Below, in pieces: positions 5,541 to 24,042 of a stretch of DNA of 64,000 bases. The notes under the pieces were generated by a model. That model was given only the letters and a program-made list of their open reading frames with translations, was not told the DNA's origin and did not search any database. The position numbers and the translations under genes are program-made. The stretch covers positions 115,474 through 179,473 of the forward strand of contig JAFWNM010000014.1 of assembly GCA_017510335.1 (NCBI GenBank). The letters run 5' to 3'. The DNA comes from Paracoccaceae bacterium (GTDB lineage Bacteria; Pseudomonadota; Alphaproteobacteria; Rhodobacterales; Rhodobacteraceae). The first letter of the stretch is position 1, and every line of letters begins with the position of its first letter.

Positions 5541-5900
5541 TCAAGCAGTGTGGTGCGGCATTGCCTTGAGCTTTTCCTTGGTGGTGTCCAGATGGACACG
5601 AACCTTGGTTCCGCTGGTTTCGCGCTGCACGTCCAGTTGACTGAACGGCACCAGCACCGAATGGGCACCCATGCCCAGAAAACCGCCGACATCGATCACT
5701 GCCTCGGTGATTTTTCCATCTGCCCCAAGGTTCAGCGCATTGATAGAGCCGATGCTTTCATCTTCGCGCCCATAAACATAGGCACCTTCAAGGTCAGATG
5801 TTTTCAGATCATGCACGTCGACGCGATCATAGCCTTCGCGCACGAAAGCGAAGGCGCCGCCAGTGCCGGTTCCAGGCTGGGTGTTGGATGCGTGTGTCAT
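5541..5900 (-). CDS. PRC-barrel domain protein, probable general-stress protein
   Basis: Small soluble protein of 119 residues. A PRC-barrel domain spans about residues 28-105 (VHDLKTSDLEGAYVYGRED, later VIDVGGFLGMGAHSVLVPF). PRC-barrels occur in photosynthetic reaction-centre H subunits, RimM and many stress-induced proteins of unknown molecular role. The start at 5900 is set by AAGGAG eight bases upstream; the longer open frame to 6296 lacks a ribosome-binding site. A perfect EcfG-type promoter lies 150 bp upstream (6050-6074), so the gene is probably in the general stress regulon. No signal peptide or membrane segment is visible. Confidence 0.85.
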   Translation of the reverse strand: MTHASNTQPGTGTGGAFAFVREGYDRVDVHDLKTSDLEGAYVYGREDESIGSINALNLGADGKITEAVIDVGGFLGMGAHSVLVPFSQLDVQRETSGTKVRVHLDTTKEKLKAMPHHTA

Positions 5901-6049
5901 TTCATTCTCCTTGATCCCGCAAATGCGGCACCAGTGGCGACAGGGGCCCCCTGCCGGGTTGCGACCAAGCATGACATTTCGGCACCTGTCCCGCGCGTTT
6001 GCACCGCGAACAGGGCCTGTTGTCCAGTCACGCTTCGTTACAAAGAAAG

Positions 6050-6074
6050 AACGCGTGCGCGCATTTGTCGTTCC
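6050..6074 (-). promoter_or_regulatory. EcfG-type (general stress) promoter for the PRC-barrel gene
   Basis: On the reverse strand GGAAC (6074-6070), 16 bases and CGTT (6053-6050) match the known alphaproteobacterial EcfG consensus exactly. Transcription would start near 6043 and give a leader of about 140 bases before the PRC-barrel ATG. Confidence 0.7.
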
Positions 6075-6088
6075 ACGCCAGCATCGCG

Positions 6089-7231
6089 TCAGCCAGGTTT
6101 TGCCAGAAAGAACCGGATCATCAACGCCGAGGCATCTGGCCCCTTCGTGTCGGTATATGATCCCGCCTTGCGGCCTCCGGACCACGCGTGCCCTGCGCCG
6201 GTCACACGCCACAATTCCACCGGCCCCACCCCCGCCGATGCAGCATAGGTGCTTTTGACATAAGCGCGCCCGCGCACCGACCGCGACACCACGCAAGATG
6301 GGACCGCATCTTTTCCTAACGCCCCCGCGACAATGCTGCTGGCGTTGGACGGGTGCACTGTGCTGTCACTGCCCCCTTGAAAGATGATGCGGCGCACGGG
6401 GTCTGATAGCACTGTTATAGCGGGTGTGTGCTGGTCAGCGCTGCCATTGCGCATGGCCGACATGGCGGAAATCACATCATGCGCGGCCCCTCTGGCCAGG
6501 CCGGAATGGATACCGGCACCGGCAAACACCTCTGGATATTCGTCAACAAGAATGGCCGCCATCGCCCCCCCTGCCGACAAACCCGCCACAAAGGTTCTGT
6601 CCCGCACCACGCCGAATTCCTTCATCAGCTTGCGCGCCAGCGCTGCCAGAATAGCAGGCTCGCCCGAACCGCGCGCCTGATCACCGGGGCGGAACCAGTT
6701 CCAGCACGAAGCCGCGTTGTTTTGCCGGGTCTGGGCGGGATAGGCCACAGCAAGACCATGCTTTTCCGCCAGCTGGTTCATATGCGTGCCAGCGGCAAAA
6801 TCATCGGGGGACTGGCTACAGCCATGCAGCATGATGATCAGGCCCTTGGGCCGTTTGGGCTGGCTGGCAGGCAAATACAACTTGTAGCGCCGCGCGCCAG
6901 CCGCGCACCGATACCGCCGCGCAAGATAACGCGCCCCATCCGGAACCCTGGGTGCAGTCTGGCCCTTTTGCGTGCCTGCAAACGCGGCAGGCATCAAGGG
7001 CTGACCGGCGCGCAGCTGCGTCACCGCCATACCAAGCGATCGCCCCACCACCCTTTTGCGCGCGCTGCGCTGCTTGGCCAGTTTTGACGTGAGCGCGGCC
7101 AATGGGGCATAGGCAGCATCAACCATGGTGACGGCCATTGCCTTTTGGACTTTGCGAACGGCCTTGGCCTGCGCGCGCGGGCGCAACAGGCGTCTGGTGC
7201 GGCGCATCGACGCCACAAGACTGGGGGACAT
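6089..7231 (-). CDS. PHB-depolymerase family esterase (Esterase_phd)
   Basis: A 380-residue alpha/beta-hydrolase. The catalytic serine is in GLSAGGA, the oxyanion region is LIIMLHGCSQSPDDFA, and the catalytic histidine is in GAGHAWSGG near the C-terminus; family members cleave short polyester or aromatic ester bonds. No signal peptide is evident; the first about 110 residues are basic and look disordered, as in intracellular PHB-depolymerase-like proteins. Start chosen at 7231, behind AAGGAAACCCC, rather than 7270. A perfect EcfG promoter lies at 7303-7327. A paralogue with the same architecture is at 14841-15980. Confidence 0.88.
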   Translation of the reverse strand: MSPSLVASMRRTRRLLRPRAQAKAVRKVQKAMAVTMVDAAYAPLAALTSKLAKQRSARKRVVGRSLGMAVTQLRAGQPLMPAAFAGTQKGQTAPRVPDGARYLARRYRCAAGARRYKLYLPASQPKRPKGLIIMLHGCSQSPDDFAAGTHMNQLAEKHGLAVAYPAQTRQNNAASCWNWFRPGDQARGSGEPAILAALARKLMKEFGVVRDRTFVAGLSAGGAMAAILVDEYPEVFAGAGIHSGLARGAAHDVISAMSAMRNGSADQHTPAITVLSDPVRRIIFQGGSDSTVHPSNASSIVAGALGKDAVPSCVVSRSVRGRAYVKSTYAASAGVGPVELWRVTGAGHAWSGGRKAGSYTDTKGPDASALMIRFFLAKPG

Positions 7232-7302
7232 GGGGTTTCCTTGAGAAGACTCGTCGACATTGCCCGCCAAGGCCGTGCCAACCCGTTAAGATATGCTGCC
7301 TA

Positions 7303-7327
7303 AACGCCGCAATCGGGCTTATGTTCC
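7303..7327 (-). promoter_or_regulatory. EcfG-type (general stress) promoter for the esterase gene
   Basis: GGAAC (7327-7323), 16 bases and CGTT (7306-7303) on the reverse strand are an exact consensus match, about 70 bp upstream of the esterase ATG at 7231. It fits in the short gap behind the hybrid kinase gene and so gives the esterase its own promoter. Confidence 0.7.
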
Positions 7328-7351
7328 CAAATCGCCCCGAAAGGCACCCTG

Positions 7352-10300
7352 TCAGGCGTCCTGCACATCAGCGGCCAGCGCCATGCGCACCAGCGCAGGC
7401 AAGGACGCGGCCCCGGTTTTGCGCATGACGGATGCGCGGTGGTTTTCAACTGTGCGCTGATTTATCCCCAGATCGGCGGCAATAATCTTGTTGGGTTCGC
7501 CTGCAAGAACATGCGCCAAGACCTGGCGTTCACGGGCGGTCAGCTTGGCAAAGCGCTGGTTGGCAGCCTTGCGCGACCCTGTTCGCGCAGGACCGTTCTG
7601 CGCGGTCCGCACAGCATGGCGCACACTGGCCAGCAATTCTGCAGCGCTTGCGGGTTTCTCGATCAGGTCCGAGGCACCGGCCTTCATGGCGGCAACCGCC
7701 ATTGCCGCATCGCCATGGCCCGTCAGCACCACAGCGGGCACTTGCGAATTCTCGGCCTGCAACAGGGCCAGCAGGTCAACCCCGCTCATGCCGGGCAGCA
7801 GGGCATCAACCAGAAGACAGGCCACAGTGTCAGGGCGCGGCACGGCCAGAAAATCCTCGGCGGTGGCATAGCAGGTCACATTCCAGCCTTCGGCCTCGAA
7901 CAGGCGGCGCATGGTTTCGCGGATCATGGGGTCATCGTCGATGACGTGCACGGTCGATGTCGACGCGTCCATGCGCCTTTCCTTGTGCGAAGTTGCGCTG
8001 TGCTTTGCGTGTAGCATGTCCGAAATCAGCGCCAGCAGCACCTGTGGCATGATCGGTTTTGTGACTTGCTTGAATTCCGTCTTTGCGATGGCTTTCAATG
8101 TCTGGGCTGTGATGTCGCCTGTCAAAATGATGGTCGGCACGGAATTGCCAAGAACATCGGGCAGGTCCTGCGCCAGCCGCAGGCCACTGGTCCCGCCGCG
8201 CAGGTCGAAATCCGTCAGCAACAGATCGGGCTGCGATGCGCCCTCGCTGGCCCAGGACAGTGCATCCTTTGCATTGGAATGGGCGATAACAGTATGCCCT
8301 TCCTTGACCAGGAATTCTTCCAGCAATTCCCGCAGCGGTCCTTCATCTTCCACCATCAGAATAACGCCTTGGCGGGGTGCCCCGCGCGGCGTGTCGGTGG
8401 CGTGCTGCATCAGCGGCGCAGCTTCCGGCGCGGGATCGACAATCGGCAGGGTGATCATGAAGGCCGACCCCCTGCCGGGGTTCGAACGCACAGAAACCTG
8501 ATGGTCCAGCAATTCCGCCAGCCGCTGAACAATGGACAGCCCCAGCCCAAGGCCCTGCGCGTCCAGCGCCTGAACCTGTGACCCCTGATGATAGGCGTCA
8601 AAAATCGTGCTGACTTCGGATTGCGGCACCCCTATGCCAGTGTCATACACCTGAATGGTCAGCGACGTGCCACGCCGCCGGCAGCCAAGCAAGATGCCGC
8701 CATCATGCGTATATTTCAGCGCGTTGGACATCAGGTTTCGTAACATCTGTTCCAGCAATTGCGGGTCCGTTCGCACCCATGCCGTACAGGGCACGAAGCG
8801 CAGTTTCAGGCGCTTCAAGTCGCATTGCGGGGAAAATTCATCGACCAGACGCTGCATCAGGCGCGCAATCACCACAGGGCGCATCACCGGACGGACAACG
8901 CCCGACTCTATGCGGTTCACATCCAGCATCGAATCCAGCATCGCCGTCATCGAGGTCAGCGTCTGGTCCAGAAGCGCCGTCAGACGCGCCCCCTCGCTGG
9001 AGCGTTTGTGCCGTGCGATAAGCGAGTTGAGAAGCGCCATCGCTTGCATTGGCTGGCGCAGATCATGGCTGGCAGAGGCCAGAAACCGCGATTTGGCGCG
9101 CGTTGCACGGTCAGCTTCTTGTGTGGCGGCAACAAGGGCCGCGTTGACCCGTTTGCGTTCGGTGATGTCAACATAAGTGATCACCACCCCTTCGAACCGC
9201 CCGCCTTCGGCACGGTAGGGCTGGACACGGCGCAAAAACCACTGTGCGTCAGACCCCGCGATTTCACGTTCAATCGGTTCGGCAAGACGCAATACGGCGC
9301 GGGCATCTTCGGTGGGGTCGTCGTCGCGCGTGACCGAGGCCAGATCCGCCAGCGGTCGGCCAATATCGGACGCGATCACACGAAAAATCGCGCGCGTGGC
9401 AGGGGTGAAAAAGCGGATATTCAGGTCAAGATCCAGAAACAGGGTCGCAACATCAGTGCTGAACAGCACGTTTTGCAGGTCGTTGGCGGTGGTGCGGTGG
9501 CGCTCCAGGGTTTCTTGCAGCTGACTGTTCAGCGCAGTCAGTTCTTCATTCAGCGATTGCAATTCTTCTTTCGAGGCCAGAAGTTCCTCATTGGTGGACT
9601 GGAACTCCTCATTCACAGACAACGCTTCGGCGCGATCGGCGCCATGCGCCTCGACTTCCTGTTCCAGATCACGCAGCGCGTCGGACAAATCGCTGCGGGT
9701 GGCTTCCAGCGCGGCTTCCAGGTCCGATTTTTGCCTGTCCTGTCCAATGGCAATGTCGGTGCCCGGCACGTCGGACGATGTGCGCACAACGTCTATGAAA
9801 CACGCAAGGAACAGCGGGTCTGCGCCTTCTGTGACCGCATGCACGGCAATGTCAAAACCGACGCCCCCGATACCGCGCCCGCCTGCAATCCTGACCACAG
9901 GGGTGTCGGTGCCGCAGGACGCGACGGCGGCGCGAAACCTTGCGCGCAAGCCCTTGGGCAGCATGCCTAGAATACCCGGATCAAGATGACCTTGTGTGAT
10001 CTTCAGGTATTTTTCAATTGGTCCCAGAAGATAGACACAATCAAGCTGCGCATTCAGCAAGGCCGCCGCAGGGGCATAGTTTTCCAACACCAGCCTTTTG
10101 CACAGATCCGCCAGAGAGCTGCGGCGTCCGGGCGTCTGCCCGGGGGTGTGGGCGGCCTCGTCGCGTTTTCCAACTGCAAAATGCATATCGCCCGTGTGGC
10201 TTCTGCCGACACGGCGCCACAACCGTGCTTCCTTGTCGGCAATCGCAAAGCAGGTGTCCCCCTGCCCCGGCATTTCCGCCGCACCCAACAGCAAAAGCCC

Positions 10301-11656
10301 CCCCTGACGCAGCGCGAAACAACAGCGCGCGATCACCCGCTTTTGCGCTTCCGGTCCCAGATAGATCAGCACATTACGACAGGACACCAGATCGATCTTG
10401 GAAAATGGCGGGTCCGACAGCAGATCCGCGACAGTGAAAACAATCAAATCCCGCAAAGAGGAACAGACCCGCCAGCCCCCGTTCTCGGAAACAAAAAACC
10501 GCGCCAGTCGCTCTGGTGACACATCGGATTCGATGTCCTTTGTGAAAAACCCTGCCCGCGCTGCCGCGATGGCCTCTGGATCGACATCAGAGGCAAGGAT
10601 CTGCAAACTGGCCTTGACACCGGCCTTTTCCATAACCTCCATGAAGGTCATGGCAAGGCTGTAGGCTTCTTCGCCCGTGCTGCACCCGGCCACCCATACC
10701 CGCAATGGCCGGTCCATCACCATGCCGGCCAAAAGGTCAGGCACAACATTCGCGGATAAATGTTCAAATACCTTCGGGTCGCGGAAAAATCCGGTCACAT
10801 GGATCAGCAAATCAGCCGAAAGCTGCGCAAGCTCCTCGGGATCAGCTTTCAGAATGTCATGATAGCGTGCCACCTCCTCTGTGCGCAGGCCAAGCATTGC
10901 CATACGACGCCCGATGCGCCGCTCCAATGTGCCGCGCTTGTAAAGCGAGATGTCCTGCGCGGCGCGGTCATCCAGAAAAGACAAAAGTTCCCCATAGTCC
11001 ACCTTTGGCGCGGGGGTGGAAGTGTTGTTTTGCTTTGGCAAAAGGGGTTCGGCGGAACTGCCGCCACGGCGTGTCAGGGTAATGAACGCATCCAGCGCGG
11101 CGACCATCTGGCTGGTTGGCAATATCTGGTCCACGAAGCCTGTTGCGATGGCGCTTTCAGGCATGCCGGGATAACCCGCATCCTTGGGGTCTTGTGCAAG
11201 AACAAGCCCGCCGGCGGCATGAATATCGGCAATACCCACACTACCATCTGACCCGGTGCCCGACAGCACGATACAACCCGCCTGCTTTGCCGCATCTTTT
11301 GCAAGTGACCGCAGCAGCACATCAAAGGGCAGTCGCACGGATTTCCCGCCATCGGGCGCGGACAAATGCATCACCTGTTGCGCGACCGTCAGGAACGCCC
11401 CGGGCGGGATGACATACACATGCCCCGCCTTCAGCGGCATGCCGTCCGCAGCCTGCACAACCGTCAGCGCCGTGTGGCGTGCCAGCAGGTCAACCATCAT
11501 ACTGTCATGAGAGGGGTCCAGATGCAGGATCAGAATGAACGCGGCGTGCAAATCAGCCGGCATATCCCCCAAAAGCGCGCGGCTTGCTTCCAACCCGCCC
11601 GCAGAGGCACCAATAGCGATGACAGGCAGGCCGGTTCGTTCTGTATGCTCAGACAT
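7352..11656 (-). CDS. Giant hybrid CheB-CheR-PAS-histidine kinase with a receiver and a fused FixJ/LuxR response regulator
   Basis: A single uninterrupted frame of 1434 residues without membrane segments. Order: CheB methylesterase (about 10-195, GASAGG, SGTGSDGS), CheR N-terminal and SAM-binding domains (about 215-485, VAGCSTGEEAYS), weak PAS, coiled coil (about 640-725), PAS (725-835), HisKA with His864 (SASHDLRQ), HATPase (960-1075, DTGIG, GLGLGLS), receiver 1 (Asp1149), receiver 2 (Asp1284) and a LuxR-type helix-turn-helix (1370-1430, LTARERQVL). It is probably a cytoplasmic stress or light/redox sensor that reaches DNA in the same chain. Start 11656 follows GGAGG. The C-terminal 206 residues look like a once separate FixJ regulator: Met1229 (7972) has its own AAGGAAAGG. 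Confidence 0.9.
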   Translation of the reverse strand: MSEHTERTGLPVIAIGASAGGLEASRALLGDMPADLHAAFILILHLDPSHDSMMVDLLARHTALTVVQAADGMPLKAGHVYVIPPGAFLTVAQQVMHLSAPDGGKSVRLPFDVLLRSLAKDAAKQAGCIVLSGTGSDGSVGIADIHAAGGLVLAQDPKDAGYPGMPESAIATGFVDQILPTSQMVAALDAFITLTRRGGSSAEPLLPKQNNTSTPAPKVDYGELLSFLDDRAAQDISLYKRGTLERRIGRRMAMLGLRTEEVARYHDILKADPEELAQLSADLLIHVTGFFRDPKVFEHLSANVVPDLLAGMVMDRPLRVWVAGCSTGEEAYSLAMTFMEVMEKAGVKASLQILASDVDPEAIAAARAGFFTKDIESDVSPERLARFFVSENGGWRVCSSLRDLIVFTVADLLSDPPFSKIDLVSCRNVLIYLGPEAQKRVIARCCFALRQGGLLLLGAAEMPGQGDTCFAIADKEARLWRRVGRSHTGDMHFAVGKRDEAAHTPGQTPGRRSSLADLCKRLVLENYAPAAALLNAQLDCVYLLGPIEKYLKITQGHLDPGILGMLPKGLRARFRAAVASCGTDTPVVRIAGGRGIGGVGFDIAVHAVTEGADPLFLACFIDVVRTSSDVPGTDIAIGQDRQKSDLEAALEATRSDLSDALRDLEQEVEAHGADRAEALSVNEEFQSTNEELLASKEELQSLNEELTALNSQLQETLERHRTTANDLQNVLFSTDVATLFLDLDLNIRFFTPATRAIFRVIASDIGRPLADLASVTRDDDPTEDARAVLRLAEPIEREIAGSDAQWFLRRVQPYRAEGGRFEGVVITYVDITERKRVNAALVAATQEADRATRAKSRFLASASHDLRQPMQAMALLNSLIARHKRSSEGARLTALLDQTLTSMTAMLDSMLDVNRIESGVVRPVMRPVVIARLMQRLVDEFSPQCDLKRLKLRFVPCTAWVRTDPQLLEQMLRNLMSNALKYTHDGGILLGCRRRGTSLTIQVYDTGIGVPQSEVSTIFDAYHQGSQVQALDAQGLGLGLSIVQRLAELLDHQVSVRSNPGRGSAFMITLPIVDPAPEAAPLMQHATDTPRGAPRQGVILMVEDEGPLRELLEEFLVKEGHTVIAHSNAKDALSWASEGASQPDLLLTDFDLRGGTSGLRLAQDLPDVLGNSVPTIILTGDITAQTLKAIAKTEFKQVTKPIMPQVLLALISDMLHAKHSATSHKERRMDASTSTVHVIDDDPMIRETMRRLFEAEGWNVTCYATAEDFLAVPRPDTVACLLVDALLPGMSGVDLLALLQAENSQVPAVVLTGHGDAAMAVAAMKAGASDLIEKPASAAELLASVRHAVRTAQNGPARTGSRKAANQRFAKLTARERQVLAHVLAGEPNKIIAADLGINQRTVENHRASVMRKTGAASLPALVRMALAADVQDA
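7976..7984 (-). promoter_or_regulatory. Internal ribosome-binding site before the FixJ-like part of the hybrid kinase
   Basis: AAGGAAAGG (reverse strand) ends three bases before ATG 7972, in frame with the large kinase. It could allow separate synthesis of a 206-residue receiver-LuxR protein (7352-7972). Whether it is used is unknown. Confidence 0.45.
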
Positions 11657-11687: not shown

Positions 11688-12084
11688 ATAAGTTTTAACC
11701 GTATCAGAGTTTCGCAAAACCCCAAACGACATTCCCCGCACAGGTCTGAGTAGTCGCGCAAACGCTGACCCCGGCACATGAGTAGATTCCGATCCTACCG
11801 GCACGCGCCGCAAAGCCGTAACTTCATCTTACGAAGCGTTGTGAGTCACGAGTAGGCCGGGCCGTCGGGCCTTTGAAACTGCAGTCAGGGTCTTTCCCTC
11901 CCCTGCTATACTTCTGCAATTTCACGATGCGCGTGGTTTGCCCGCCCGGCCAGCGTACCCAACGATCGCGCAGCATCCTGCTGCGCCAGCATATCATGCC
12001 GGGTAAGGCGCGATGCCCGAAATCTGATCCGCTCCGCCGTTGTGAAAAGTGGCGCGGGCACGTCCACACCGGAAAGAACCACCC
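11688..12084. other. 397-bp divergent intergenic region
   Basis: Separates the hybrid kinase (left) from the small-membrane-protein operon (right). I found no exact GGAAC-N16-CGTT in either direction, no RNA gene and no credible small gene here. It must hold both promoters, but none can be named with confidence. Confidence 0.5.
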
Positions 12085-12159
12085 ATGAACCAGATCATTT
12101 ACATCGTCGGCGCCGTTGTGGTCGTCATCGCAATCCTTAGCTTTGTCGGACTGGCCTGA
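12085..12159 (+). CDS. Very small single-span membrane protein (24 aa)
   Basis: ATG-TGA frame of 24 residues starting MNQIIYIVGAVVVV; nearly the whole chain is one hydrophobic helix ending in SFVGLA. GGAAAG lies nine bases upstream. Coding-like short membrane peptides of this kind recur next to stress genes in Rhodobacteraceae as far as I remember, but I cannot name a family. First gene of a rightward cluster with the larger membrane protein at 12184, a second mini-protein at 13190 and DUF892, suggesting an envelope-stress role. Confidence 0.6.
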   Translation: MNQIIYIVGAVVVVIAILSFVGLA

Positions 12160-12183: not shown

Positions 12184-13152
12184 ATGCCAATGATTACCGA
12201 ACACCAACCGCCCCGGCGGATTACCCCGGGTATGACTGAAACAGCCACAGCCGACAGCAGCTACATGCAATGGGGCGCGATTATCGCGGGCAGTATCTTG
12301 ATGCTTGCCTTCTCGTTTCTGTTGATCAGCTTTGGCGCGTCCCTTGGTTTGTCGCTGACATCGCCCTATCGGGGCGAAGGGGTATCTGCTGCATGGCTCG
12401 CGGTTGCTGCGGGTATCTGGTTTGCGTGGGTCATGGTTTCGGGCTTCGGGGCGGGGGGATACCTTGCAGGGCGCATGCGCCGCCATGCCGGGGACGGGAC
12501 CCCCCACGAAGTTGCCTTGCGCGATGGCGCGCATGGGCTGGTGGTCTGGGCCACTGCTGCCTTGACCAGCACGCTGATTGCCGCAACGGGTGTCGGCGGG
12601 GTGCTTGGCGCGGGCGCGGCGGTCGTCGGAACAGCCACCGAGGTGACATCCCAGGCCGCATCCAGCGACTACTTCGCCAATGTCTTGTTGCGCAGCGGTG
12701 TGCAGGCCCCGCAAACCGGCACCAATGACACTGCACCAATGGCTGATGGGGGTGCCCCCGCGTTGCCTGCGGGTCAACAAGCCGCCCCTTCCGGTCAAGG
12801 GGGACAGGCCACACTCCAGCAAGAGGTTGCGGGCATTCTTGCGCGCAGCGCAACCGAAGGCGAACTGGCAGGCCGCGACCGCCTGTATCTGGCACAACTG
12901 ATCGCCGCCAACAGCGACCTTGACCAGGACGCAGCACTTGCGCGTATCGACGACATCACCGCCGAGATTGACGCCGCCCGCCAAACCGCCATGGACGCAG
13001 TGGAACAGGCGCGGGTTGCGGGTGTTGTCTTCGGGTTTATCGCGGCCGCCACATTGCTGATCGGGGCCATCGCCGCCGTCTTCGCTGCCGTTGCGGGGGG
13101 CAAGCACCGCGACGACGGGCTGGACCTGACTGCGCTGACCCTTCGGCGCTGA
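12184..13152 (+). CDS. Multi-span membrane protein of unknown function
   Basis: A 322-residue integral membrane protein. Hydrophobic segments lie at about residues 30-57, 69-98, 118-148 and 275-302. Between the third and fourth is a long Gln/Gly/Ala/Pro-rich soluble stretch (about 165-270) that includes TLQQEVAGILARSATEGEL. Small-residue-rich helices (ATGVGGVLGAGAAVVG) suggest close packing, as in glycine-zipper proteins. It is 24 bp after the 24-aa gene and 37 bp before the 23-aa gene, so one operon is likely. I do not recognise a named family. The extensive reverse-strand reading frame over this gene is a codon-composition artefact. Confidence 0.78.
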   Translation: MPMITEHQPPRRITPGMTETATADSSYMQWGAIIAGSILMLAFSFLLISFGASLGLSLTSPYRGEGVSAAWLAVAAGIWFAWVMVSGFGAGGYLAGRMRRHAGDGTPHEVALRDGAHGLVVWATAALTSTLIAATGVGGVLGAGAAVVGTATEVTSQAASSDYFANVLLRSGVQAPQTGTNDTAPMADGGAPALPAGQQAAPSGQGGQATLQQEVAGILARSATEGELAGRDRLYLAQLIAANSDLDQDAALARIDDITAEIDAARQTAMDAVEQARVAGVVFGFIAAATLLIGAIAAVFAAVAGGKHRDDGLDLTALTLRR

Positions 13153-13648: not shown

Positions 13649-14134
13649 ATGACCATCGAAAATCTGGACGACCTTTTCCTTCATACCCTGAAGGACGTGC
13701 TTTACGCCGAACGCAAGATTTTGAAAGCGCTTCCGAAAATGGAACGCAAGGCAACCGACCCGAAGTTGAAAGCGGCCCTGTCGTCGCATCGGGACGAGAC
13801 AGAGACGCAAATTTTGCGGCTTGAAGACGTGTTCGAAAGCCTTGGAAAAGCGGCACGCGGCGCAAAGTGCGACGCCATGGTGGGGCTGATCGAAGAAGCC
13901 GACGGCCTGATGGCGGAAATCGAAGATACCGGAACCATGGATGCCGCACTCATCTCGTTGGCGCAGGCGGTCGAACATTACGAGATTGCGCGCTACGGCA
14001 CGCTTGTCGCCTGGGCAACACAGCTTGGCCACCCCCAGGCAGCAAAGCTTCTGAAAGAAACGCTGAAAGAAGAATATGGCGCTGACAAGGCCCTGTCACA
14101 ACTGGCCGAAGATCGCCTGAATGCGGCAGCCTGA
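13649..14134 (+). CDS. DUF892 (YciE/YciF) ferritin-like protein
   Basis: A 161-residue four-helix-bundle protein. The N-terminal IENLDDLFLHTLKDVLYAER and the later HYEIARYGTLVAWA, EEYGADKAL segments match the DUF892/YciF family. The metal-site carboxylates and histidine are spread over the four helices (Glu in LYAERK, Glu/His in AVEHYE). Members are strongly stress-induced in enterobacteria and alphaproteobacteria; their reaction is not known. Start at 13649 is fixed by AAAGGA. It is 45 bp upstream of the ECF sigma gene on the same strand. Confidence 0.9.
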   Translation: MTIENLDDLFLHTLKDVLYAERKILKALPKMERKATDPKLKAALSSHRDETETQILRLEDVFESLGKAARGAKCDAMVGLIEEADGLMAEIEDTGTMDAALISLAQAVEHYEIARYGTLVAWATQLGHPQAAKLLKETLKEEYGADKALSQLAEDRLNAAA

Positions 14135-16006: not shown

Positions 16007-16423
16007 TCAGGTGATGCGGTCTGCAAGGGCCGTCTTGACGGCATCGGGGGCTTGCAACGTGCCAAGCACGCTAAGTGATGAAATTGTATCGCGGGCCAGA
16101 TCGGGTGTTACATCCGGCGCGATGATGACCAGCCCCAGCGCGCGGATCTCCAGCATATGCCCTGCGGCGTGGGCGGCCATCAAATCCTTGCGCGTCACAT
16201 GGCGCAGGCCCAGATCAACGCTTTTGCGCACCACGATCTGGCGCACAGTGTCAGCATGGCGTTCAATCTGGTTGCGGATGGCAGTGCGAATGAAATCGCT
16301 GCGGTTGGAATAGAACCCTTCCTGCACCAGAAGCTCGATCTGTCCCAGATCCACAAACCCCAGATTGATGGTGATCTTCTCGGAATCGGGCGTTTTCGGT
16401 TTTTGCTGGGGGGTGGCTGCCAT
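16007..16423 (-). CDS. Ribbon-helix-helix (CopG/NikR-like) transcriptional regulator
   Basis: A 138-residue protein. Residues about 17-60 (EKITINLGFVDLGQIE, then SNRSDFIRTAIRNQIER) are a ribbon-helix-helix DNA-binding domain. The C-terminal half (about 65-135) is a separate domain ending in VKTALADRIT, possibly for ligand or dimer contacts. I start it at 16423, because the longer open frame would run through the operator. A 12-bp perfect palindrome lies just upstream. It is the first gene of a two-gene operon with the esterase and most likely represses itself. Confidence 0.82.
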   Translation of the reverse strand: MAATPQQKPKTPDSEKITINLGFVDLGQIELLVQEGFYSNRSDFIRTAIRNQIERHADTVRQIVVRKSVDLGLRHVTRKDLMAAHAAGHMLEIRALGLVIIAPDVTPDLARDTISSLSVLGTLQAPDAVKTALADRIT

Positions 16424-16538: not shown

Positions 16539-18632
16539 TTACTTGGCCATCAAATCTTCGCGCTTCCAGAACCGCAGCCCGCGGCACGCTGTGACGAAGG
16601 CGTGGGCAGACCCGTCATCGGTCAGCGCATGCATGCCGCCATCCTGCGCGCCGTCCAGCCCACTGGCCGCGACCAGGTCCATCGCGGGTTTCGTCAGCCC
16701 GATATATTTGCAATGCACATACGCATCTTTCACGAATTCAAGCGCTGCAGGCGTTTGCGCAAGGCTTCGGGTTCCGGGCAGAATGGCAACCGCATCGAAC
16801 AGAACGGAAGGTGCGCCACCAAGCTGGTCGGTTACCGGGTGCAGATGGCCATTGTTGCACATGGCGCCACCGATTTTCGGCGCAATGGTGCGCACCACGC
16901 CGCCCTCGCCCTCTGCAGCGGATTTCAGCGCCATCAGCATTCCGCCGTCGAACCCGTCGCTGATCAGCACGCCCAGAATGCGCCCTTTGAAACTGTCGGG
17001 CGGGGGGGACTGAATGCTCAGCGCTGCAGACGGTTTCAGGTCCGGTCGTGTGGGCTGCGCGGCAGGCGGCGGGGTCGGCATGTCGGCAAGGCCCAGTTTT
17101 TCTGCCGCCGCTTTTGCAAGGCTTTCGTCAATATGCATCAGATGCGCGACCATCCGTGCACGGATTGCGGGTTCGACACATTTCGACAGTTCGAACACCA
17201 GCGCGGCAAGGATATGTCCCTGCTCGGACGGGGTCTGGCTGATATAGAACTGCCGCGCCTGACTGTAATGGTCGGCAAAGCTTTCAGGGCGCAACCGCAG
17301 CTTGTCCCCCTCGACGGGCTGTTGATAGCTGACATACCCCTCCAGCGGGTGCGCGCGCGGCCCCTGTGCCCAGCCATTGGGTTCATAATTGACGCGCCCC
17401 TTGCGGGCGTCTGTCTGCATATGCCCGTCTTGCTGATAGTTGCTGACCGGACACCCCTTGGGCGCATTAACGGGCAGTTTGGTGAAATTCGGCCCACCAA
17501 GGCGTTTCAGCTGCGTGTCAAGATAGGAGAAATTGCGCCCTTGCAGTAGCGGGTCGTCACTGAAATCAATGCCGGGAATGACATTTGCAGTGCAGAAAGC
17601 AACCTGTTCGGTTTCGGCGAAGAAGTTGTCCACTGCGCGGTCCAGCCGCAATGTGCCGATGAATTCCACGGGGCATTCTTCTTCGGGGATAATCTTGGTG
17701 GGGTCCAGCACGTCAAAGGCAAAGCTGTCGGCGAAGTCCTGATCGAACATCTGCACGCCCAGGTCCCATTCCGGAAAATCGCCCCGGTCAATGGCATCCC
17801 ACAAATCGCGGCGGTGGCGGTCAGGGTCGGCACCATTGCTTTTTACCGCTTCGTCCCAGACCACCGATTGCAGGCCCATGCGGGGCTTCCAGTGGAACTT
17901 CACGAAGGTGGACTGCCCCTGGGCATTTACAAACCGGAAGGTATGCACGCCAAACCCTTCCATCGTGGTGAAGGAACGCGGGATGGTGCGGTCGGACATC
18001 TGCCACATGACCATGTGCATCGCTTCCGGTGTAAGCGATATGAAATCCCAAAAGTTATCATGCGCCGATTGGGCCTGCGGAAACCCCCGGTCGGGGGCGG
18101 GTTTGACAGCATGGACCAGATCAGGGAACTTGATCGCATCCTGAATGAAGAACACCGGAATGTTGTTGCCGACAATGTCCCAATTGCCTTCATCAGTGTA
18201 GAATTTAACCGCAAACCCGCGAACATCGCGCGCCAGATCGGGCGACCCTTTGCTGCCCGCCACCGTCGAGAAGCGCACGAAAACTTCTGTTTTCTTGCCT
18301 TCGGACGCAAACGGCGCAGCGCGCGTCACATCGCCCAGCGCGCGGGTGCAAGTGAATGTGCCATGCGCCCCATAGCCACGGGCATGCACAACACGCTCTG
18401 GAATGCGTTCGTGGTCAAAGTGAAACAGCTTTTCACGCAGCACAAAATCTTCCATCAGCGTCGGGCCGCGCGCGCCTGCGCGCAGCGAATTCTGGTTGTC
18501 AGCGATCACCACACCTTGCGCGGTTGTCAAACGCGCGCCATCATCGGATGCGTGCTGATGCACTTCACCGCCCGCGCCGGTTTTGGAATTTAATTTGGCG
18601 AAATCGGTGGTCTTCTGGGTGGGGTCAGTCAT
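16539..18632 (-). CDS. katE: Large-subunit catalase HPII (KatE type)
   Basis: A 697-residue haem catalase that dismutates hydrogen peroxide. The catalytic core spans about residues 40-510: active-site His in [14 protein letters not shown], distal Asn in [15 protein letters not shown], and the haem-ligand Tyr in [15 protein letters not shown]-terminal class-I glutamine amidotransferase/DJ-1-like domain (about 545-690, starting [18 protein letters not shown]) marks the large clade-II enzymes such as E. coli HPII. Start 18632 follows AAGGA; the longer frame to 18791 has no ribosome-binding site. It probably follows a 69-aa gene under an EcfG-like promoter (18981-19005), consistent with katE being a general-stress gene. 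Confidence 0.95.
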
Positions 18633-19217: not shown

Positions 19218-20759
19218 ATGGGCCTGAAGCGCTGGATCGAACCCGCCCCGACGCGCCTTGACGCGGACCCCCGCATCACACCGACGCGCAGTGCGGCATT
19301 GCCAGACATAACATTGGCGCGACCCGGGTTCGCACACTGCCTGACGTCCGGCAAAACGCTGTGCCATATGTTCGCGGGCGCGGCAGCGCTGGTGTTTTCC
19401 GCACCGCTGGCCGCAGAAACCGCCCGCGCGCAGATCGAACAAGGCGAATATGTTGCGCGGGCTGCGGGCTGCATGTCCTGCCATGGCGAGGATCTGGCAG
19501 GGGGCTATCAGGTTGAAACCCCGATGGGCACGATTGTCGCCAGCAATATCAGCCCGTCGCGCGACCACGGCATTGGCAGCTACAGCCGCGATGATCTGGC
19601 ACGCGTCCTGCGCAAGGGGGTCAGCCCAGACCGCAGATTGTATCCCGCCATGCCCTATACGTCCTATCGGGGCATGACCGACCCGGATATCGATGCGCTG
19701 TATGTCTGGCTTCAGGATCAGCCGCCCGTCGAACAAGACCCCCCGCAGCAAACCGACCTGCCCTTCCCATTCAACATCCGCACGGGGGTGCTGGCATGGA
19801 ACTGGCTGTATCTGGGCGACCGCGATTTACCGCAGTTTGATGACCCGGTGCTTCGCCGCGGCGCCTATCTGGTGGACCATCTGGGCCATTGTGGCGAATG
19901 CCACACCCCGCGCAATGACCTGTTCGGCATGCAAAACGACCTGTATCTGGCGGGCGAGGTGATGGACGGGTGGCTGGCCCCGAACCTGACATCGGACCCG
20001 GACACCGGACTGGGTGGCTGGAACACACAGGACATTGTCGACTATCTGCGCACAGGCACTGCAGACAACATTGTTCAGGCCGCCGGGCCTATGGCACAAT
20101 TTGTTCGCCACGCGACCAGCCATCTTGATGACGCGGACCTGCACGCAATGGCGGCCTACCTGAAAACCGTGCCCGCAATTGACACGCGCGATCAGGATAT
20201 TCCCGTCCTTGTGCCCGTGGCCCAGCGCGAAACCCCGCAACACCGTTTCAACCAGATCCGCGAGGAAATGGCCCAGGCCCGCACCCGCGACGACCTGTCA
20301 GAACCCGAACACCTGTTTCTTGACCATTGCGCAGCCTGTCACGGCGTCACCGGACAGGGCCAGCCACAGGCATATTACCCGCCATTGGTGCAAAATGCCG
20401 CGCTGCGCCGCGAAGACCCTCGCAATCTGTTGATGGTTCTGGCGCATGGCGTGCCTGCGGGCAAATTGTATCGCGTGCCCGCAATGCCCGGCTTTGAAGA
20501 TGAGTTAAGCCATGACCAGATTGCCATGCTGGCCAATTACACCCGCACCACATTCGGCGGGCGACAAGACAGCACCCTAAGCGGGGCCGATGTCGCGCGC
20601 GCCATTACCCCCGATAACCAGATGCCTGCCACCATGCGCGCCCTGCAAATGGCGGCATGGGTCGCGCTGGTCGTGGCAATCGGGCTGCTGGTGGCTGTGC
20701 CGCTGCTGTGGTGGGTGCTGGCCCGCCGGCGCGGGTTGAAGAAACAGCAGGAGGGGTGA
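19218..20759 (+). CDS. Membrane-anchored triheme cytochrome c (dehydrogenase cytochrome subunit type)
   Basis: About 513 residues with three c-type haem sites: CMSCH (residues 85-89), CGECH (225-229) and CAACH (371-375). A C-terminal membrane helix (about 485-507) is followed by a basic tail. This is the plan of the cytochrome subunit of membrane alcohol, gluconate and sorbitol dehydrogenases, which passes electrons to ubiquinone or oxidases. The hydrophobic stretch MFAGAAALVFSAPLAAETAR (about 51-70) looks like a signal sequence but sits unusually deep, so the true start could be later (ATG 19368) although only 19218 agrees with the promoter. It precedes the FAD amine oxidase by 4 bp. Confidence 0.85.
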   Translation: MGLKRWIEPAPTRLDADPRITPTRSAALPDITLARPGFAHCLTSGKTLCHMFAGAAALVFSAPLAAETARAQIEQGEYVARAAGCMSCHGEDLAGGYQVETPMGTIVASNISPSRDHGIGSYSRDDLARVLRKGVSPDRRLYPAMPYTSYRGMTDPDIDALYVWLQDQPPVEQDPPQQTDLPFPFNIRTGVLAWNWLYLGDRDLPQFDDPVLRRGAYLVDHLGHCGECHTPRNDLFGMQNDLYLAGEVMDGWLAPNLTSDPDTGLGGWNTQDIVDYLRTGTADNIVQAAGPMAQFVRHATSHLDDADLHAMAAYLKTVPAIDTRDQDIPVLVPVAQRETPQHRFNQIREEMAQARTRDDLSEPEHLFLDHCAACHGVTGQGQPQAYYPPLVQNAALRREDPRNLLMVLAHGVPAGKLYRVPAMPGFEDELSHDQIAMLANYTRTTFGGRQDSTLSGADVARAITPDNQMPATMRALQMAAWVALVVAIGLLVAVPLLWWVLARRRGLKKQQEG

Positions 20760-20763
20760 AACA

Positions 20764-22359
20764 ATGACACTGACAACACCGACCCGCAGGCAATTGCTGG
20801 CCATGATCGGACAGGTCGCAGGGGCAGCGGCCATGTATCAGGCGATGACCAGCATGGGGTTTGCCGCCGAGTCGGGCTATGCGGGCGCACCCGAATTGCA
20901 AGGCCCCCGTCAGGGGCGGCGCGTGCTGATCCTTGGGGCTGGCATTGCTGGCATGGCCGCCGCCTATGAGATGCGCCGCGCAGGCTATGCGGTCAAGATC
21001 CTGGAATACCAGGACCGCACTGGCGGGCGCTGCCTGACGCTGCGCGGTGGCGACCGATACACCGAAATGGGCGGGCACGAGATTGCCTGCGATTTTCAGG
21101 GCGATGGCTATCTGAACGCCGGTCCATGGCGTCTGCCGGTGCATCACCGCGCGGTGTTTGACTATTGCCGCAGGCTGGGCGTGGCCATGCACCCTTTCAT
21201 CATCAAGAACAACCGGGCCTTTCTGCATTCCGCCAGTGCCTTCGACGGGCAGCCGCAGCGCATAGGAGACGTGGAAAAGGATATGCGCGGCCATGTGTCC
21301 GAACTTCTGGCGAAGGCGTTGAATCAGGGGGGCCTGGATGATGCTGTCACCCCCGAAGACCGCGAAAAACTGCTGGAGGGGCTGAAGGACTGGGGCGTTC
21401 TGGACAGGAATTATACCTACCGTGCCAGCGACGATCTGGGCGGGGTGCGCGGGTGGGACATTCCACCAGGTGGCGGGTTGATGCCCGAAAAGAAACCCTC
21501 GCAACCAAATGACCTGTCGCGCCTGCTGCACTCCGGGTTGTGGGACCAGGTGTTCAATTTCAACAGCTATAGTTTCGAACCGCCGATGTTCGAACCCGCA
21601 GGCGGGATGGACGCCATCACCGACGCCTTCGCCCGCGAGGTGGAGGACGTGATCCAACTGAATGCCCGTGTTACCCGCATCGCACAACATGACGATGGCG
21701 TGACCGTCACCTATGAAGATGGCGGGCGCGGTGGCACAGTGCGCGAACAAACTGCCGACTGGTGCATCTGCACAATTCCGCTGTCCGTGCTTGCCCAGAT
21801 ACAGGTCGATTGCTCGGACGCGATGCGCAAGGCGATTGCGGCGGTCCCGTATGCGTCGGCCTTCAAGGTCGGGCTGGAATTCAGACGCCGCTTTTGGGAA
21901 GAAGAAGACGGCATTCTTGGCGGCGTCAGCTATACCGACCTGCCATTGGTGCAGATCGCATACCCCAATTACGGCTTTCTGTCCGCAGGTCCGGCAGTGC
22001 TGCAGGCGGCCTATGACACGGCAACGGGGGGGCGCAACTTCACCTATTCCTGGTCCAGCATGACGCCGCAGGAACGGATCGACGCGGCCCTTGCGTTTGG
22101 CCGCCAGATCCACCCGCAATATGACGCGGAATTCCTGTCGGGCACATCCTGGGTATGGCACCGCGTGGACTGGTCGCTGGGCTGCTACGGGCAATGGACG
22201 CAAGAACTGCGCGACGAGCACTACAAGACCCTGTGCGAAATCGACAACCGGCTGGTACTGGCGGGCGAGCATTGCTCGCATATTCCGGCATGGCTGGAAG
22301 GGTCGCTGCTGTCGGCGCTGGATGCGATCAAGCGTCTGGACCAAAGGGAGAACGCCTGA
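20764..22359 (+). CDS. Tat-exported FAD amine oxidase/dehydrogenase (flavin monoamine oxidase family)
   Basis: A 531-residue flavoprotein. TRRQLLAMIG with the following hydrophobic stretch is a Tat signal, so it probably folds with FAD in the cytoplasm and acts in the periplasm. The FAD-binding Rossmann motif is VLILGAGIAGMAAAYEM and then EYQDRTGGR (about residues 54-90), and the C-terminal FAD contact is in LVLAGEHCSHIPAWLEG. The family oxidises primary amines or L-amino acids to imines. Its embedding between two cytochrome c genes suggests that electrons go to cytochromes instead of oxygen. Substrate unknown. The 4-bp gap to the cytochrome and 1-bp gap to the next gene indicate one operon. 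Confidence 0.88.
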   Translation: MTLTTPTRRQLLAMIGQVAGAAAMYQAMTSMGFAAESGYAGAPELQGPRQGRRVLILGAGIAGMAAAYEMRRAGYAVKILEYQDRTGGRCLTLRGGDRYTEMGGHEIACDFQGDGYLNAGPWRLPVHHRAVFDYCRRLGVAMHPFIIKNNRAFLHSASAFDGQPQRIGDVEKDMRGHVSELLAKALNQGGLDDAVTPEDREKLLEGLKDWGVLDRNYTYRASDDLGGVRGWDIPPGGGLMPEKKPSQPNDLSRLLHSGLWDQVFNFNSYSFEPPMFEPAGGMDAITDAFAREVEDVIQLNARVTRIAQHDDGVTVTYEDGGRGGTVREQTADWCICTIPLSVLAQIQVDCSDAMRKAIAAVPYASAFKVGLEFRRRFWEEEDGILGGVSYTDLPLVQIAYPNYGFLSAGPAVLQAAYDTATGGRNFTYSWSSMTPQERIDAALAFGRQIHPQYDAEFLSGTSWVWHRVDWSLGCYGQWTQELRDEHYKTLCEIDNRLVLAGEHCSHIPAWLEGSLLSALDAIKRLDQRENA

Positions 22360-22360
22360 G

Positions 22361-22810
22361 ATGACCCCGAACCCGCTATATCTGTTCGCCGCGCTAACTG
22401 TGCTGGCCACAGGTGCCCTGGCACAACAAACAAGCACGCCGCCCCCACCCGCGCAGGATATCGACACGCTGCTGTCGCGGTTTTCCGATGATCCCGACCA
22501 CTTCACCCAGACAGATGGCGCAGACCTTTATCGCGCCACCTGTCAAGCCTGCCATATGGAAGATGGGCGCGGCGCGATGGGTGCGGGCGCGCATCCACCG
22601 CTGGCGGGCAACCCCAAAATGCGGTCCAAACACTTCCTTGCAGGGGTTATCCTGACCGGCTATCACGCCATGCCGCGTTTCGGGCATATGATGTCCGATG
22701 ATCAGGTTGCAGCAGTCACGAATTATGTGCGCAGCCATTTCGGCAATGACTTCCCTGATGTCATCACCGCCGCAGAAGTTGCCGATCTGCGCCCCCCCGA
22801 GGACGAATAG
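22361..22810 (+). CDS. Small exported c-type cytochrome
   Basis: A 149-residue protein. A signal peptide (LYLFAALTVLATGALAQ) is followed by a short Pro-rich linker and one haem site CQACH near residues 64-68 with the conserved Met ligand in AMPRFGHMM. It is a class-I cytochrome that probably receives electrons from the Tat-exported flavoenzyme and hands them to the triheme protein. Start two bases after the flavoenzyme stop, with GGGAG upstream. Confidence 0.88.
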   Translation: MTPNPLYLFAALTVLATGALAQQTSTPPPPAQDIDTLLSRFSDDPDHFTQTDGADLYRATCQACHMEDGRGAMGAGAHPPLAGNPKMRSKHFLAGVILTGYHAMPRFGHMMSDDQVAAVTNYVRSHFGNDFPDVITAAEVADLRPPEDE

Positions 22811-22818
22811 ACCCGCAG

Positions 22819-22897: not shown

Positions 22898-23515
22898 ATG
22901 CTGGGATTCCTTGTCGATCACGTCGATGTCGTGAACGCCGTGCTGAACGGTATGATGGTGCTGATCTGGACGATCTATCTGCATCTTTTCCTGATCAACC
23001 ACCTGCGCCAGTCCAGAAGCGTGATCCATATTGACATTGGCGCTGCAAAAGGGGCGCGGTCACGGTGCCTTGTCACAAATTTAAGCCCCACACCCGTCTA
23101 TGTTCAGGGCATCGTGGCAGATCTTGCGCATAACGGGAACAAGGCGCGCACAATCGTCACGGAACGCAACGAAATATCCGAAGATGATGTTCAGGACCCA
23201 CTGGCGCGCACCAATCGCGGCACACTTGGCCCGGGGCAAACTGTTGATATCGGTTCACTTTCGGAACTGGTCACCCGCGCCCGGATCAGTCTGGGGGAAG
23301 ACTGGTCTGCAGACCAGATCGACAGCGTGACAATCACGATCGTCGCCATCCCGGGGCTTTCGGATTGTATTGTCGGAGCAAGCAAAACCTTCAATTCGGA
23401 AGAATACGCTGGCAGCAACATCTTCTCATCCCAAAGAATACTTACCCAGCAACTGCGCCCGCGCCAGACGCGCGAACAGTTCAACCACATATTGCGCGAT
23501 CAAATGCAGGGCTGA
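22898..23515 (+). CDS. Membrane-anchored protein of unknown function
   Basis: About 205 residues: an N-terminal membrane helix (about 12-30, NAVLNGMMVLIWTIYLHLF) and a soluble domain of about 170 residues rich in beta-forming sequence (RCLVTNLSPTPVYVQGIV, IDSVTITIVAIPGLS). It reads like a small sensor or adaptor, but I recognise no family. Start 22898 is chosen since it opens the hydrophobic helix. It follows the amine dehydrogenase operon by 87 bp and ends before a strong terminator, so it is probably the last gene of that unit. Confidence 0.68.
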   Translation: MLGFLVDHVDVVNAVLNGMMVLIWTIYLHLFLINHLRQSRSVIHIDIGAAKGARSRCLVTNLSPTPVYVQGIVADLAHNGNKARTIVTERNEISEDDVQDPLARTNRGTLGPGQTVDIGSLSELVTRARISLGEDWSADQIDSVTITIVAIPGLSDCIVGASKTFNSEEYAGSNIFSSQRILTQQLRPRQTREQFNHILRDQMQG

Positions 23516-23558
23516 CCGGCACAGGCAACAGTTTGGCGCTTGGTGTCTATGAAGATAA

Positions 23559-23591
23559 CGGCCAGAACATATCCTGTCTGGCCGGTTTTTT
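23559..23591 (+). terminator. Intrinsic terminator
   Basis: CGGCCAGA (23559-23566) and TCTGGCCG (23577-23584) flank a 10-base loop and are followed by G and a run of six T residues. It ends transcription of the 22898 gene. Confidence 0.8.
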
Positions 23592-23803
23592 CTGGAATGA
23601 AAACCCAGAAGCGGGCAGTGCGTCACGCCCCTGATTTGCGACCGAAGATGCCCCCGACAAATGGGATAGAAGCTCGACTGCCGTTTCGTTGGCTACAGGG
23701 TGAAATCGGGAAAACCCCTGTATTCTTCTTGCCATTGCGCCCGATTGACATGCCGGGGACACCTTCAGGATATAAACCCGCGCCGCGCTGTAAGGTTCCC
23801 GCT
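23592..23803. other. Intergenic region with no identified gene
   Basis: Between the terminator and the orphan stress promoter I saw no coding frame with a ribosome-binding site and no RNA family motif. Short open frames on both strands here lack any support. Confidence 0.4.
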
Positions 23804-23828
23804 GGAACGCTTGCGCAAGCCGCGCGTT
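23804..23828 (+). promoter_or_regulatory. Orphan EcfG-type promoter with no clear protein gene behind it
   Basis: GGAAC (23804-23808), 16 bases and CGTT (23825-23828) match the consensus exactly. Transcription would start near 23835 and read into a strong hairpin and then against the 29-aa gene on the other strand. Confidence 0.6.
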
Positions 23829-23834
23829 CTGTTT

Positions 23835-23981
23835 CGCCAAGACGCAGCCATGACCCTTGATGGCGGGGACATCATGTGTGTCCGTCGCCATCAGGGACCA
23901 TGCCACCCCGTTCCAAGGCAGTCACGTCATCCTGTTGCGGCTGGCAACCGGATCAGACGGGCTGAAGTATCATCACAGTGA
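23835..23981 (+). ncRNA. Candidate stress-induced small RNA (hypothetical)
   Basis: Placed behind the perfect EcfG promoter at 23804. The predicted transcript contains CCCTTGATGGCG (23854-23865) pairing with CGCCATCAGGG (23886-23896), one bulge, with a nested GGAC/GTCC. The end is not defined by a terminator; I use the only downstream stop codon. An ATG frame of 44 residues (23850-23981) runs through it and could instead be the product. Purely inferential. Confidence 0.3.
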
Positions 23982-24042
23982 CTGTGTAAATCGCGGTTCC
24001 AGCAAAGAACCCTGCCACAAGCCATAAACGCAGCGTATCCAT
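23953..24042 (-). CDS. Very small membrane protein (29 aa)
   Basis: MDTLRLWLVAGFFAGTAIYT and a further hydrophobic stretch ending QPV, 29 residues forming one membrane helix. A perfect AGGAGG stands six bases before the ATG, which makes translation very likely. It follows the 109-aa exported protein by 60 bp on the same strand. The family is unknown to me. Confidence 0.68.
   Translation of the reverse strand: MDTLRLWLVAGFFAGTAIYTVTVMILQPV

What the first reader, a model, noticed from the sequence alone, without database searches (positions are those of the whole stretch)
5541..24042. A general-stress-response island with four exact EcfG promoters
Exact GGAAC-N16-CGTT sequences occur at 6050 (-), 7303 (-), 19145 (+) and 23804 (+). 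A rough calculation for one spacing (4 to the power 9 over 128 kb of strands) gives about 0.5 chance matches in the whole window. All four fall within 18 kb, and the same stretch holds KatE, DUF892, PRC-barrel, an EcfG-like sigma factor and an AhpD-like gene just beyond. The island therefore looks like a coordinated EcfG regulon segment, with enzymes (esterase, amine dehydrogenase) not usually considered stress genes.
Basis: partly seen in the sequence, partly recalled or inferred. Interest (0 to 1): 0.7.

Follow-up and report, generated by a model that had tools for sequence, protein, structure and literature searches.

The report
Second stress-sigma island with own promoters
This stretch is a side branch of a well-known bacterial stress response: it carries a second copy of the master stress switch, with its own slightly different start signals and probably its own on-switch, so it could show how one stress response splits into two separately controlled ones.

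Summary
The four GGAAC-N16-CGTT sites are where stated, but they are not equivalent, and the window holds a fifth. The genome has 39; 14 of the 18 promoter-like ones sit at three EcfG-paralogue loci, the densest being the standard NepR-EcfG-PhyR locus on another contig. The window island is a second locus around an EcfG-type sigma with no NepR or PhyR beside it. Sites before the PRC-barrel gene (6050) and the esterase gene (7303) are conserved in relatives. Site 19145 is well placed but unconfirmed. Site 23804 faces no gene; an EcfG-type site on the other strand (23775-23799) precedes an Atu_At1 sRNA, and 17 of 18 sRNA copies examined have such a site. KatE and the DUF892-sigma operon lack one. 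Island-type promoters mostly read GGAACG/A where core-locus promoters read GGAACC (C in 5 of 28 versus 56 of 61), and a box, GTAGATTCCG, precedes the sigma operon in 15 of 18 loci spanning the region, beside a divergent CheB-CheR-kinase-LuxR gene. Best reading: an EcfG paralogue switched on by its own phosphorelay, using a promoter dialect. No expression data; who binds the box is inferred.

The parts
5541..5903 (-). PRC-barrel gene, target of the 6050 site
   Evidence: PF05239 E 1.6e-9
6050..6074 (-). GGAACG-N16-CGTT promoter of the PRC gene, conserved
   Evidence: GGAACG at -170 to -194 before the PRC start in the window and 5 relatives: 5 of these 6 exact, one 8/9 (L138 and L146 are one genome); also exact in L281
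6089..7231 (-). est1, PHB-depolymerase-type esterase
   Evidence: PF10503; NF050058 296.5 bits, over cut-off
7303..7327 (-). GGAACA-N16-CGTT promoter of est1, conserved
   Evidence: at least 8 of 9 positions in window, L131, L133, L135, L279, L281; not found in L138 and L147, so 6 of 8 genomes
7352..11656 (-). CheB-CheR-PAS-HisKA-HATPase-REC-REC-LuxR hybrid kinase/regulator (start placed by conservation)
   Evidence: Pfam domains; C-terminal 200 aa hit FixJ PRK09390 at 236.6 bits, cut-off 255; six-sequence alignment
11779..11797 (+). conserved box TGAGTAGATTCCGATCCTA, proposed activator site of the sigma operon
   Evidence: first seen invariant in a 5-species alignment; GTAGATTCCG and CT invariant in the 15 loci aligned, which were picked because they hold the box; one copy in the genome at up to 2 mismatches, the reversed control also giving one
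11819..11824 (+). TAACTT, -10-like hexamer at fixed spacing from the box
   Evidence: TA at this position in 14 of 15, A in 15 of 15, no gap from the box
12085..12159 (+). 24-aa hydrophobic small ORF MNQIIYIVGAVVVVIAILSFVGLA
   Evidence: found in 13 of 24 pieces scanned, window included; several pieces do not span the place
12190..13152 (+). conserved membrane-type protein, no Pfam hit
13649..14134 (+). DUF892 protein
   Evidence: PF05974 E 8.6e-58
14180..14707 (+). EcfG2: EcfG-type ECF sigma paralogue
   Evidence: Sigma70_r2, r4_2 and PhyR_sigma2 Pfam hits; own clade of 18, SH-aLRT 100
14841..15980 (-). est2, paralogue of est1; no EcfG site found
16007..16423 (-). ribbon-helix-helix regulator (RHH_8)
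   Evidence: PF17723 E 3.7e-46
16539..18629 (-). katE catalase; no EcfG-type site upstream
   Evidence: best match 6 of 9 in window and L133
19145..19169 (+). GGAACA-N16-CGTT, possible promoter of the cytochrome c-amine oxidase operon
   Evidence: 49 nt before the start at 19218; conservation not shown
19218..22810 (+). cytochrome c, flavin amine oxidase, small cytochrome c
23654..23760 (-). Atu_At1 sRNA (RF02496)
   Evidence: 88.3 bits, gathering 60, E 3.9e-14
23775..23799 (-). GGAACC-N16-GGTT, EcfG-type promoter of the sRNA
   Evidence: 17 of 18 sRNA copies have a site at 8/9 or better ending 5-14 nt upstream
23804..23828 (+). exact match without a downstream gene; probably not a promoter

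Best explanation
The stretch is a secondary general-stress island of a Rhodobacteraceae bacterium, built around a paralogue (EcfG2) of the general-stress sigma EcfG. Inferred working: the divergent hybrid protein (CheB-CheR-PAS-kinase-receiver-receiver-LuxR) senses an unknown signal, phosphorylates its own receiver, and its LuxR/FixJ-like end binds the GTAGATTCCG box centred near -41 of a sigma-70-type promoter. This transcribes small ORF, membrane protein, DUF892, ecfG2. EcfG2 then drives GGAAC(G/A)-N16-CGTT promoters of the PRC-barrel and esterase genes, perhaps of the cytochrome c-amine oxidase operon. The core NepR-EcfG1-PhyR locus elsewhere reads GGAACC promoters. The Atu_At1 sRNA in the island carries a core-like GGAACC site. 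Shown from sequence: sites, conservation, base-6 difference, box, gene order, absence of an adjacent NepR. Inferred: the operon itself, who binds the box, which sigma reads which site, NepR independence.
For: EcfG2 clade of 18, SH-aLRT 100. The genome's only NepR is on C9; in the genus none of the 25 NepR matches lies on a contig that carries EcfG2. Island order kept in other genera. PRC and est1 sites conserved while spacers differ. Base 6: EcfG2 loci G17 A4 C5 T2 of 28 promoter-like sites; core loci C56 A3 G1 T1 of 61; Fisher 5.6e-12. Box in 15 of 18 loci that span the region, at fixed distance from a -10-like hexamer, and between kinase and sigma in all 11 loci where both were on the piece. 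G137 (95% complete) has EcfG2, the box (2 mismatches) and three GGAACG promoters, but no NepR match and no second EcfG match at E 1e-20.
Against: Base 6 is not absolute: 5 of 28 EcfG2-locus sites are GGAACC, and in G037, G172, G384 and G422 none of 7 sites is GGAACG. The 17 GGAACG sites come from 8 genomes and many are orthologous, so Fisher overstates. Matches in EcfG2 loci that I classed as non-promoter are also mostly G (10 of 15). Family-wide, core sites are C in 43 of 55, not all, and the own core locus has one GGAACG. A candidate specificity residue fails a tree-aware test, and G137 breaks it. The box is missing or degraded in L139, L286, L288 and is present in L140 (G037) without the kinase on the 15.8 kb read. 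Published EcfG paralogues mostly share one motif (passages). No expression data.
Confidence: 0.55

Rival explanations
1. An ordinary part of the single EcfG1 regulon: the core sigma reads all GGAAC-N16-CGTT sites, and EcfG2 is a redundant or dosage paralogue.
For: Methylobacterium and Sphingopyxis paralogues share a motif (passages). Sphingomonas EcfG-regulated promoters include GGAACG and GGAACA (passages). The At1 site is GGAACC.
Against: Base-6 split and G137, which has GGAACG promoters without a NepR match or a second EcfG match.
Confidence: 0.25
2. EcfG2 is held by the single NepR like EcfG1, so PhyR-NepR controls both; the box only sets basal level.
For: One NepR in the genome; EcfG2 keeps the general EcfG form, including a PhyR_sigma2 hit.
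Against: In the genus no NepR match lies on an EcfG2 contig; G137 lacks a NepR match; a conserved box precedes the sigma genes instead.
Confidence: 0.15
3. The cluster is chance plus a hitchhiking sigma gene.
For: Genome-wide count shows no excess over the reversed pattern; 23804 and 48139 look like chance.
Against: Two sites conserved across genera with diverged spacers; 14 of 18 promoter-like sites at EcfG loci.
Confidence: 0.05

Closest known systems
Alphaproteobacterial general stress response (NepR-EcfG-PhyR), ECF15
   Same: EcfG-type sigma, GGAAC-N16-CGTT sites, PRC-barrel targets; a complete core locus exists in this genome on C9
   Different: the window locus lacks NepR and PhyR; its kinase is of HisKA, not HWE/HisKA_2 type; its sigma operon has another promoter
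Non-canonical EcfG paralogues: R. etli EcfG2 (PMC3892343), Sphingopyxis granuli EcfG1/EcfG2 (PMC7083833), M. extorquens EcfG1-6 (PMC4814048), Rubellimicrobium thermophilum GSR/GSR' (PMC12148442); passages only
   Same: extra EcfG copies, some without an anti-sigma gene; in R. etli only 1 of 19 EcfG2-dependent units matched the EcfG1 motif
   Different: the passages I saw describe no base-6 split of the -35 and no divergent hybrid kinase-LuxR with a conserved box
FixJ/NarL-type response regulators
   Same: REC-GerE output; site centred near -41 (my count)
   Different: fused to CheB-CheR-PAS-kinase in one chain; FixJ model score below its cut-off
GsrN, sigma-T-dependent sRNA of Caulobacter (PMC5869019; passages)
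   Same: an sRNA with an EcfG-type promoter
   Different: Atu_At1 is its own Rfam family; homology to GsrN was not tested

Membership tests
EcfG (ECF15) sigma factors | sigma region 2 and 4 domains, EcfG-like sequence | tested here: met
   Pfam hits; 50% identity to the genome's NepR-linked EcfG. No ECF15 model was run
EcfG (ECF15) sigma factors | nepR/phyR adjacent (canonical copy) | tested here: not met
   sole NepR on C9; no NepR on EcfG2 contigs of the genus; no PhyR match at EcfG2 loci. So a paralogue, not the canonical EcfG
EcfG (ECF15) sigma factors | own EcfG-type promoter (autoregulation) | tested here: not met
   no conserved site before the sigma, DUF892 or the 12190 gene
EcfG (ECF15) sigma factors | binding by NepR | not testable with these tools
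   needs binding assay
EcfG regulon membership of PRC and est1 | conserved GGAAC-N16-CGTT at promoter distance | tested here: met
   PRC 7 of 7 genomes read, est1 6 of 8
EcfG regulon membership of PRC and est1 | sigma-dependent expression | not testable with these tools
   needs mutants
EcfG regulon membership of katE and DUF892-sigma | conserved GGAAC-N16-CGTT at promoter distance | tested here: not met
EcfG regulon membership of cytochrome c-amine oxidase operon | conserved GGAAC-N16-CGTT at promoter distance | tested here: inconclusive
   L294 has a non-aligned N17 site; the G037 contig ends too early
Atu_At1 sRNA (RF02496) | covariance-model score over gathering | tested here: met
   88.3 versus 60 bits
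FixJ (PRK09390) | score over curated cut-off | tested here: not met
   236.6 versus 255 bits; Response_reg and GerE over their cut-offs

The most novel reading that the evidence does not exclude
An insulated second stress sigma system: EcfG2 has left NepR-PhyR control, is switched on at the transcriptional level by a one-protein CheB/CheR-kinase-LuxR phosphorelay through a box found once in the genome, and has moved its promoters to a GGAACG dialect, distinct from the GGAACC dialect of the core response in the same cell.
Probability: 0.4. Interest if true: 0.7.

Novelty: new variant of a known kind. Interest (0 to 1): 0.55.

Why it matters
EcfG paralogues are common and how they keep apart is unsettled. 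Here one base of the -35 and one single-copy box give two direct tests. It also gives the Atu_At1 sRNA a likely place in the general stress response across Rhizobiales and Rhodobacterales.

Tried and rejected
Rejected: the idea that all four sites are alike; that KatE and DUF892-sigma are motif-driven; that one recognition-helix residue (Asn versus Ser) sets base 6. That residue correlates (75 core loci: Asn with C 34, Asn without 13, Ser without 25, Ser with C 3) but needs only 5 changes on the tree, the independent-pairs test is not significant (too few pairs), and G137 contradicts it. In the SigW structure paper (PMC6713349, passages) base -30 is contacted through the backbone, which also speaks against it.

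Led nowhere: 50%-identical amine-oxidase relatives (L230-L233) gave no cytochrome c hit and no site by the amine oxidase (L230 has one GGAACC match near its contig start); Rfam on 22 pieces (19 of relatives, 3 of the own genome) found no other At1; paper searches for At1 plus stress sigma, for -35 specificity of paralogues, for Rhodobacterales EcfG, for FixJ sites and for the hybrid architecture gave nothing on the base-6 split, the box or At1 in what I saw: listings, and passages of the papers named.
Full report
Observation. The four exact GGAAC-N16-CGTT matches are at the stated places; a fifth lies at 48139. In the whole genome (3.61 Mb, 43 contigs; window = C8:115474-179473) there are 39 matches with N16 and 23 with N17. 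The reversed pattern gives 129 and 74, so raw counts carry no signal; position does. With a codon-usage gene finder trained on this genome, 18 of 39 N16 matches are intergenic and within 300 nt of a start on their strand; 14 of these 18 lie at three loci, each with an EcfG-type sigma gene: C8 (window) 3, C9 8, C43 3. Six of 23 N17 matches are promoter-like. Most matches were judged on 3-kb pieces, so a start beyond the piece would be missed. Across 38 genomes of the genus, those with a NepR match have 7.45 matches per Mb (n=20), those without 5.12 (n=18), p=0.0015; the reversed pattern does not differ (p=0.59).

The core response is elsewhere. Contig C9 carries NepR (PF18557), an EcfG and a HisKA_2/HWE kinase, PhyR (PhyR_sigma2, PhyR_sigma-like and Response_reg over cut-off) and a pair of overlapping divergent sites between phyR and nepR. 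The window sigma is 50% identical to that EcfG and 42% to the third paralogue on C43. In a 128-protein tree the window type (EcfG2, 18 sequences) is one clade with SH-aLRT 100 (quick method, so moderate trust). EcfG2 at 62% identity or more occurs in 8 of 38 genomes of the genus; 11 of 394 family genomes match at E 1e-50, two of these (G083, G422) at only 55-57% identity. Named holders include Rhodovulum strictum DSM 11289 and MAGs.

What is conserved in the island. The order PRC - esterase - hybrid kinase - (divergent) small ORF, membrane protein, DUF892, sigma - (opposing) esterase 2, RHH, KatE recurs in other genera with losses. The PRC promoter is GGAACG in the window and in five relatives, one with 8 of 9 positions, and in L281. 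The est1 promoter is present (8 or 9 of 9) in the window and L131, L133, L135, L279, L281, and not found in L138 and L147. KatE has nothing above 6 of 9 in the two genomes where its upstream was read; the best DUF892 match (8 of 9, window) is not kept in relatives. The cytochrome c-amine oxidase operon recurs in G142 (74% and 91% identity) with a GGAACA-N17 site 206 nt upstream that does not align with the window's, and in G037 where the contig ends too early.

Site 23804. No gene follows on its strand for 819 nt. Rfam Atu_At1 lies on the other strand, 23760 to 23654, 88.3 bits against a gathering score of 60, with GGAACC-N16-GGTT at 23799-23775 just upstream (that pattern with N16-17 has 2 matches in the window, 0.79 expected). 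The plasmid collection gave 22 further copies; I fetched 17, leaving five whose match rows repeat those of fetched ones (H4, H11, H13, H19, H20). Of 18 copies including the window, 17 have a site with at least 8 of 9 positions (C or G accepted as first -10 base) ending 5-14 nt before the RNA (9 of them 9/9; one, L307, reads CGAAC), each reached by 0-3 of 300 shuffles; L309 has none. Where the match began inside the RNA its start was extrapolated. At1 therefore looks like a stress-sigma sRNA; EcfG-controlled sRNAs as such are known (GsrN, PMC5869019, passages).

Promoter dialect. Base 6 of the -35: EcfG2 loci, 28 promoter-like sites, G17 A4 C5 T2; core loci, 61 sites, C56 A3 G1 T1; Fisher for C 5.6e-12. 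All non-promoter matches in the own genome are even (A11 G10 T9 C8 of 38), but non-promoter matches inside the two kinds of loci lean the same way as the promoter-like ones (EcfG2 loci G10 C4 T1 of 15; core loci C12 T2 A1 G1 of 16), so either some are real sites misjudged or the loci share a bias. In the core loci of eight relatives of the genus, 40 of 40 are C; the own core locus has one G. Upstream of phyR over the alphaproteobacterial loci then held, C69 T52 A7 G5 of 133; summed over the unnamed-family rows, C43 T7 A4 G1 of 55. Caveats: the 17 GGAACG sites come from 8 genomes and include orthologues; G037, G172, G384 and G422 have none in 7 sites; Sphingomonas EcfG targets include GGAACG (passages). 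A residue explanation failed.

Control of ecfG2. The divergent region holds a block, GTAGATTCCG...CT, first seen in a five-species alignment. Scanning 24 pieces and relaxing the match, I count 18 distinct loci that span the place; 15 have the block, and aligned they keep it without a gap up to a -10-like hexamer (TA in 14, A in 15). These 15 were chosen for having the block, so their invariance is partly by selection. Without it: L139 and L288, and L286 (a 5-mismatch version before its small ORF); none of the three has the kinase on the piece read. The half-sites GTAG...CTAC form an imperfect 17-bp dyad, centre near -41 by my count. It occurs once in the genome, exactly; at up to 2 mismatches there is no other copy, and the reversed control has one match. 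L140 has the block but no kinase on the piece read, and pieces L137, L284 and L285 are too short to tell. The neighbour kinase ends in a receiver plus GerE domain, the natural binder; this is inference. A 24-aa hydrophobic small ORF follows the box.

Comparison. EcfG paralogues are known (passages). In M. extorquens and S. granuli they share one motif; in R. etli only 1 of 19 EcfG2-dependent units matched the EcfG1 motif. In R. sphaeroides the PhyR cascade has a narrower role (PMC5830050, passages). I found no report of this dialect, box or wiring in searches (listings and passages only), so 'new variant of a known kind'.

Verdict. It is better read as an EcfG paralogue's own island: two promoters well supported, one possible, one match on the wrong strand beside an sRNA promoter, and a likely separate on-switch.

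Noticed in passing
G000:C43:72845-80164 (L042): Third EcfG-like sigma with an exact GGAAC-N16-CGTT 102 nt upstream, plus two more promoter-like sites (one before a PhyH-type dioxygenase); base 6 is T, A, A.
   Followed up: partly
window 5903-6043, minus strand: The PRC mRNA leader would be long (about 140 nt, start site inferred) and its 3' half (GCAGGGGGC-CCTG, CGGG-TCAAGGAGA) is largely conserved in five genomes; possible leader structure.
   Followed up: no
window 12085-12159 (+): 24-aa hydrophobic peptide MNQIIYIVGAVVVVIAILSFVGLA, conserved across genera ahead of the sigma genes.
   Followed up: partly
window 19218-22359; L234; L294: The amine oxidase is about 91% identical between the window, G142 and another genus (G037) whose EcfG2 is 73-74% identical to the window's: possible horizontal transfer.
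   Followed up: no
window 5390-5518 (+): Sub-threshold Thr_leader Rfam match (31.5 bits, gathering 55).
   Followed up: no
window 6089-7231 and 14841-15980: Two paralogous type-1 short-chain PHA depolymerase-like proteins flank the regulators; only est1 has an EcfG-type site.
   Followed up: partly
window 37956-37980 (+): GGAACG-N16-GGTT match outside the island.
   Followed up: no
G145: A genome without a NepR match but with 9.6 motif matches per Mb, above the mean of the NepR-less genomes (5.12).
   Followed up: no
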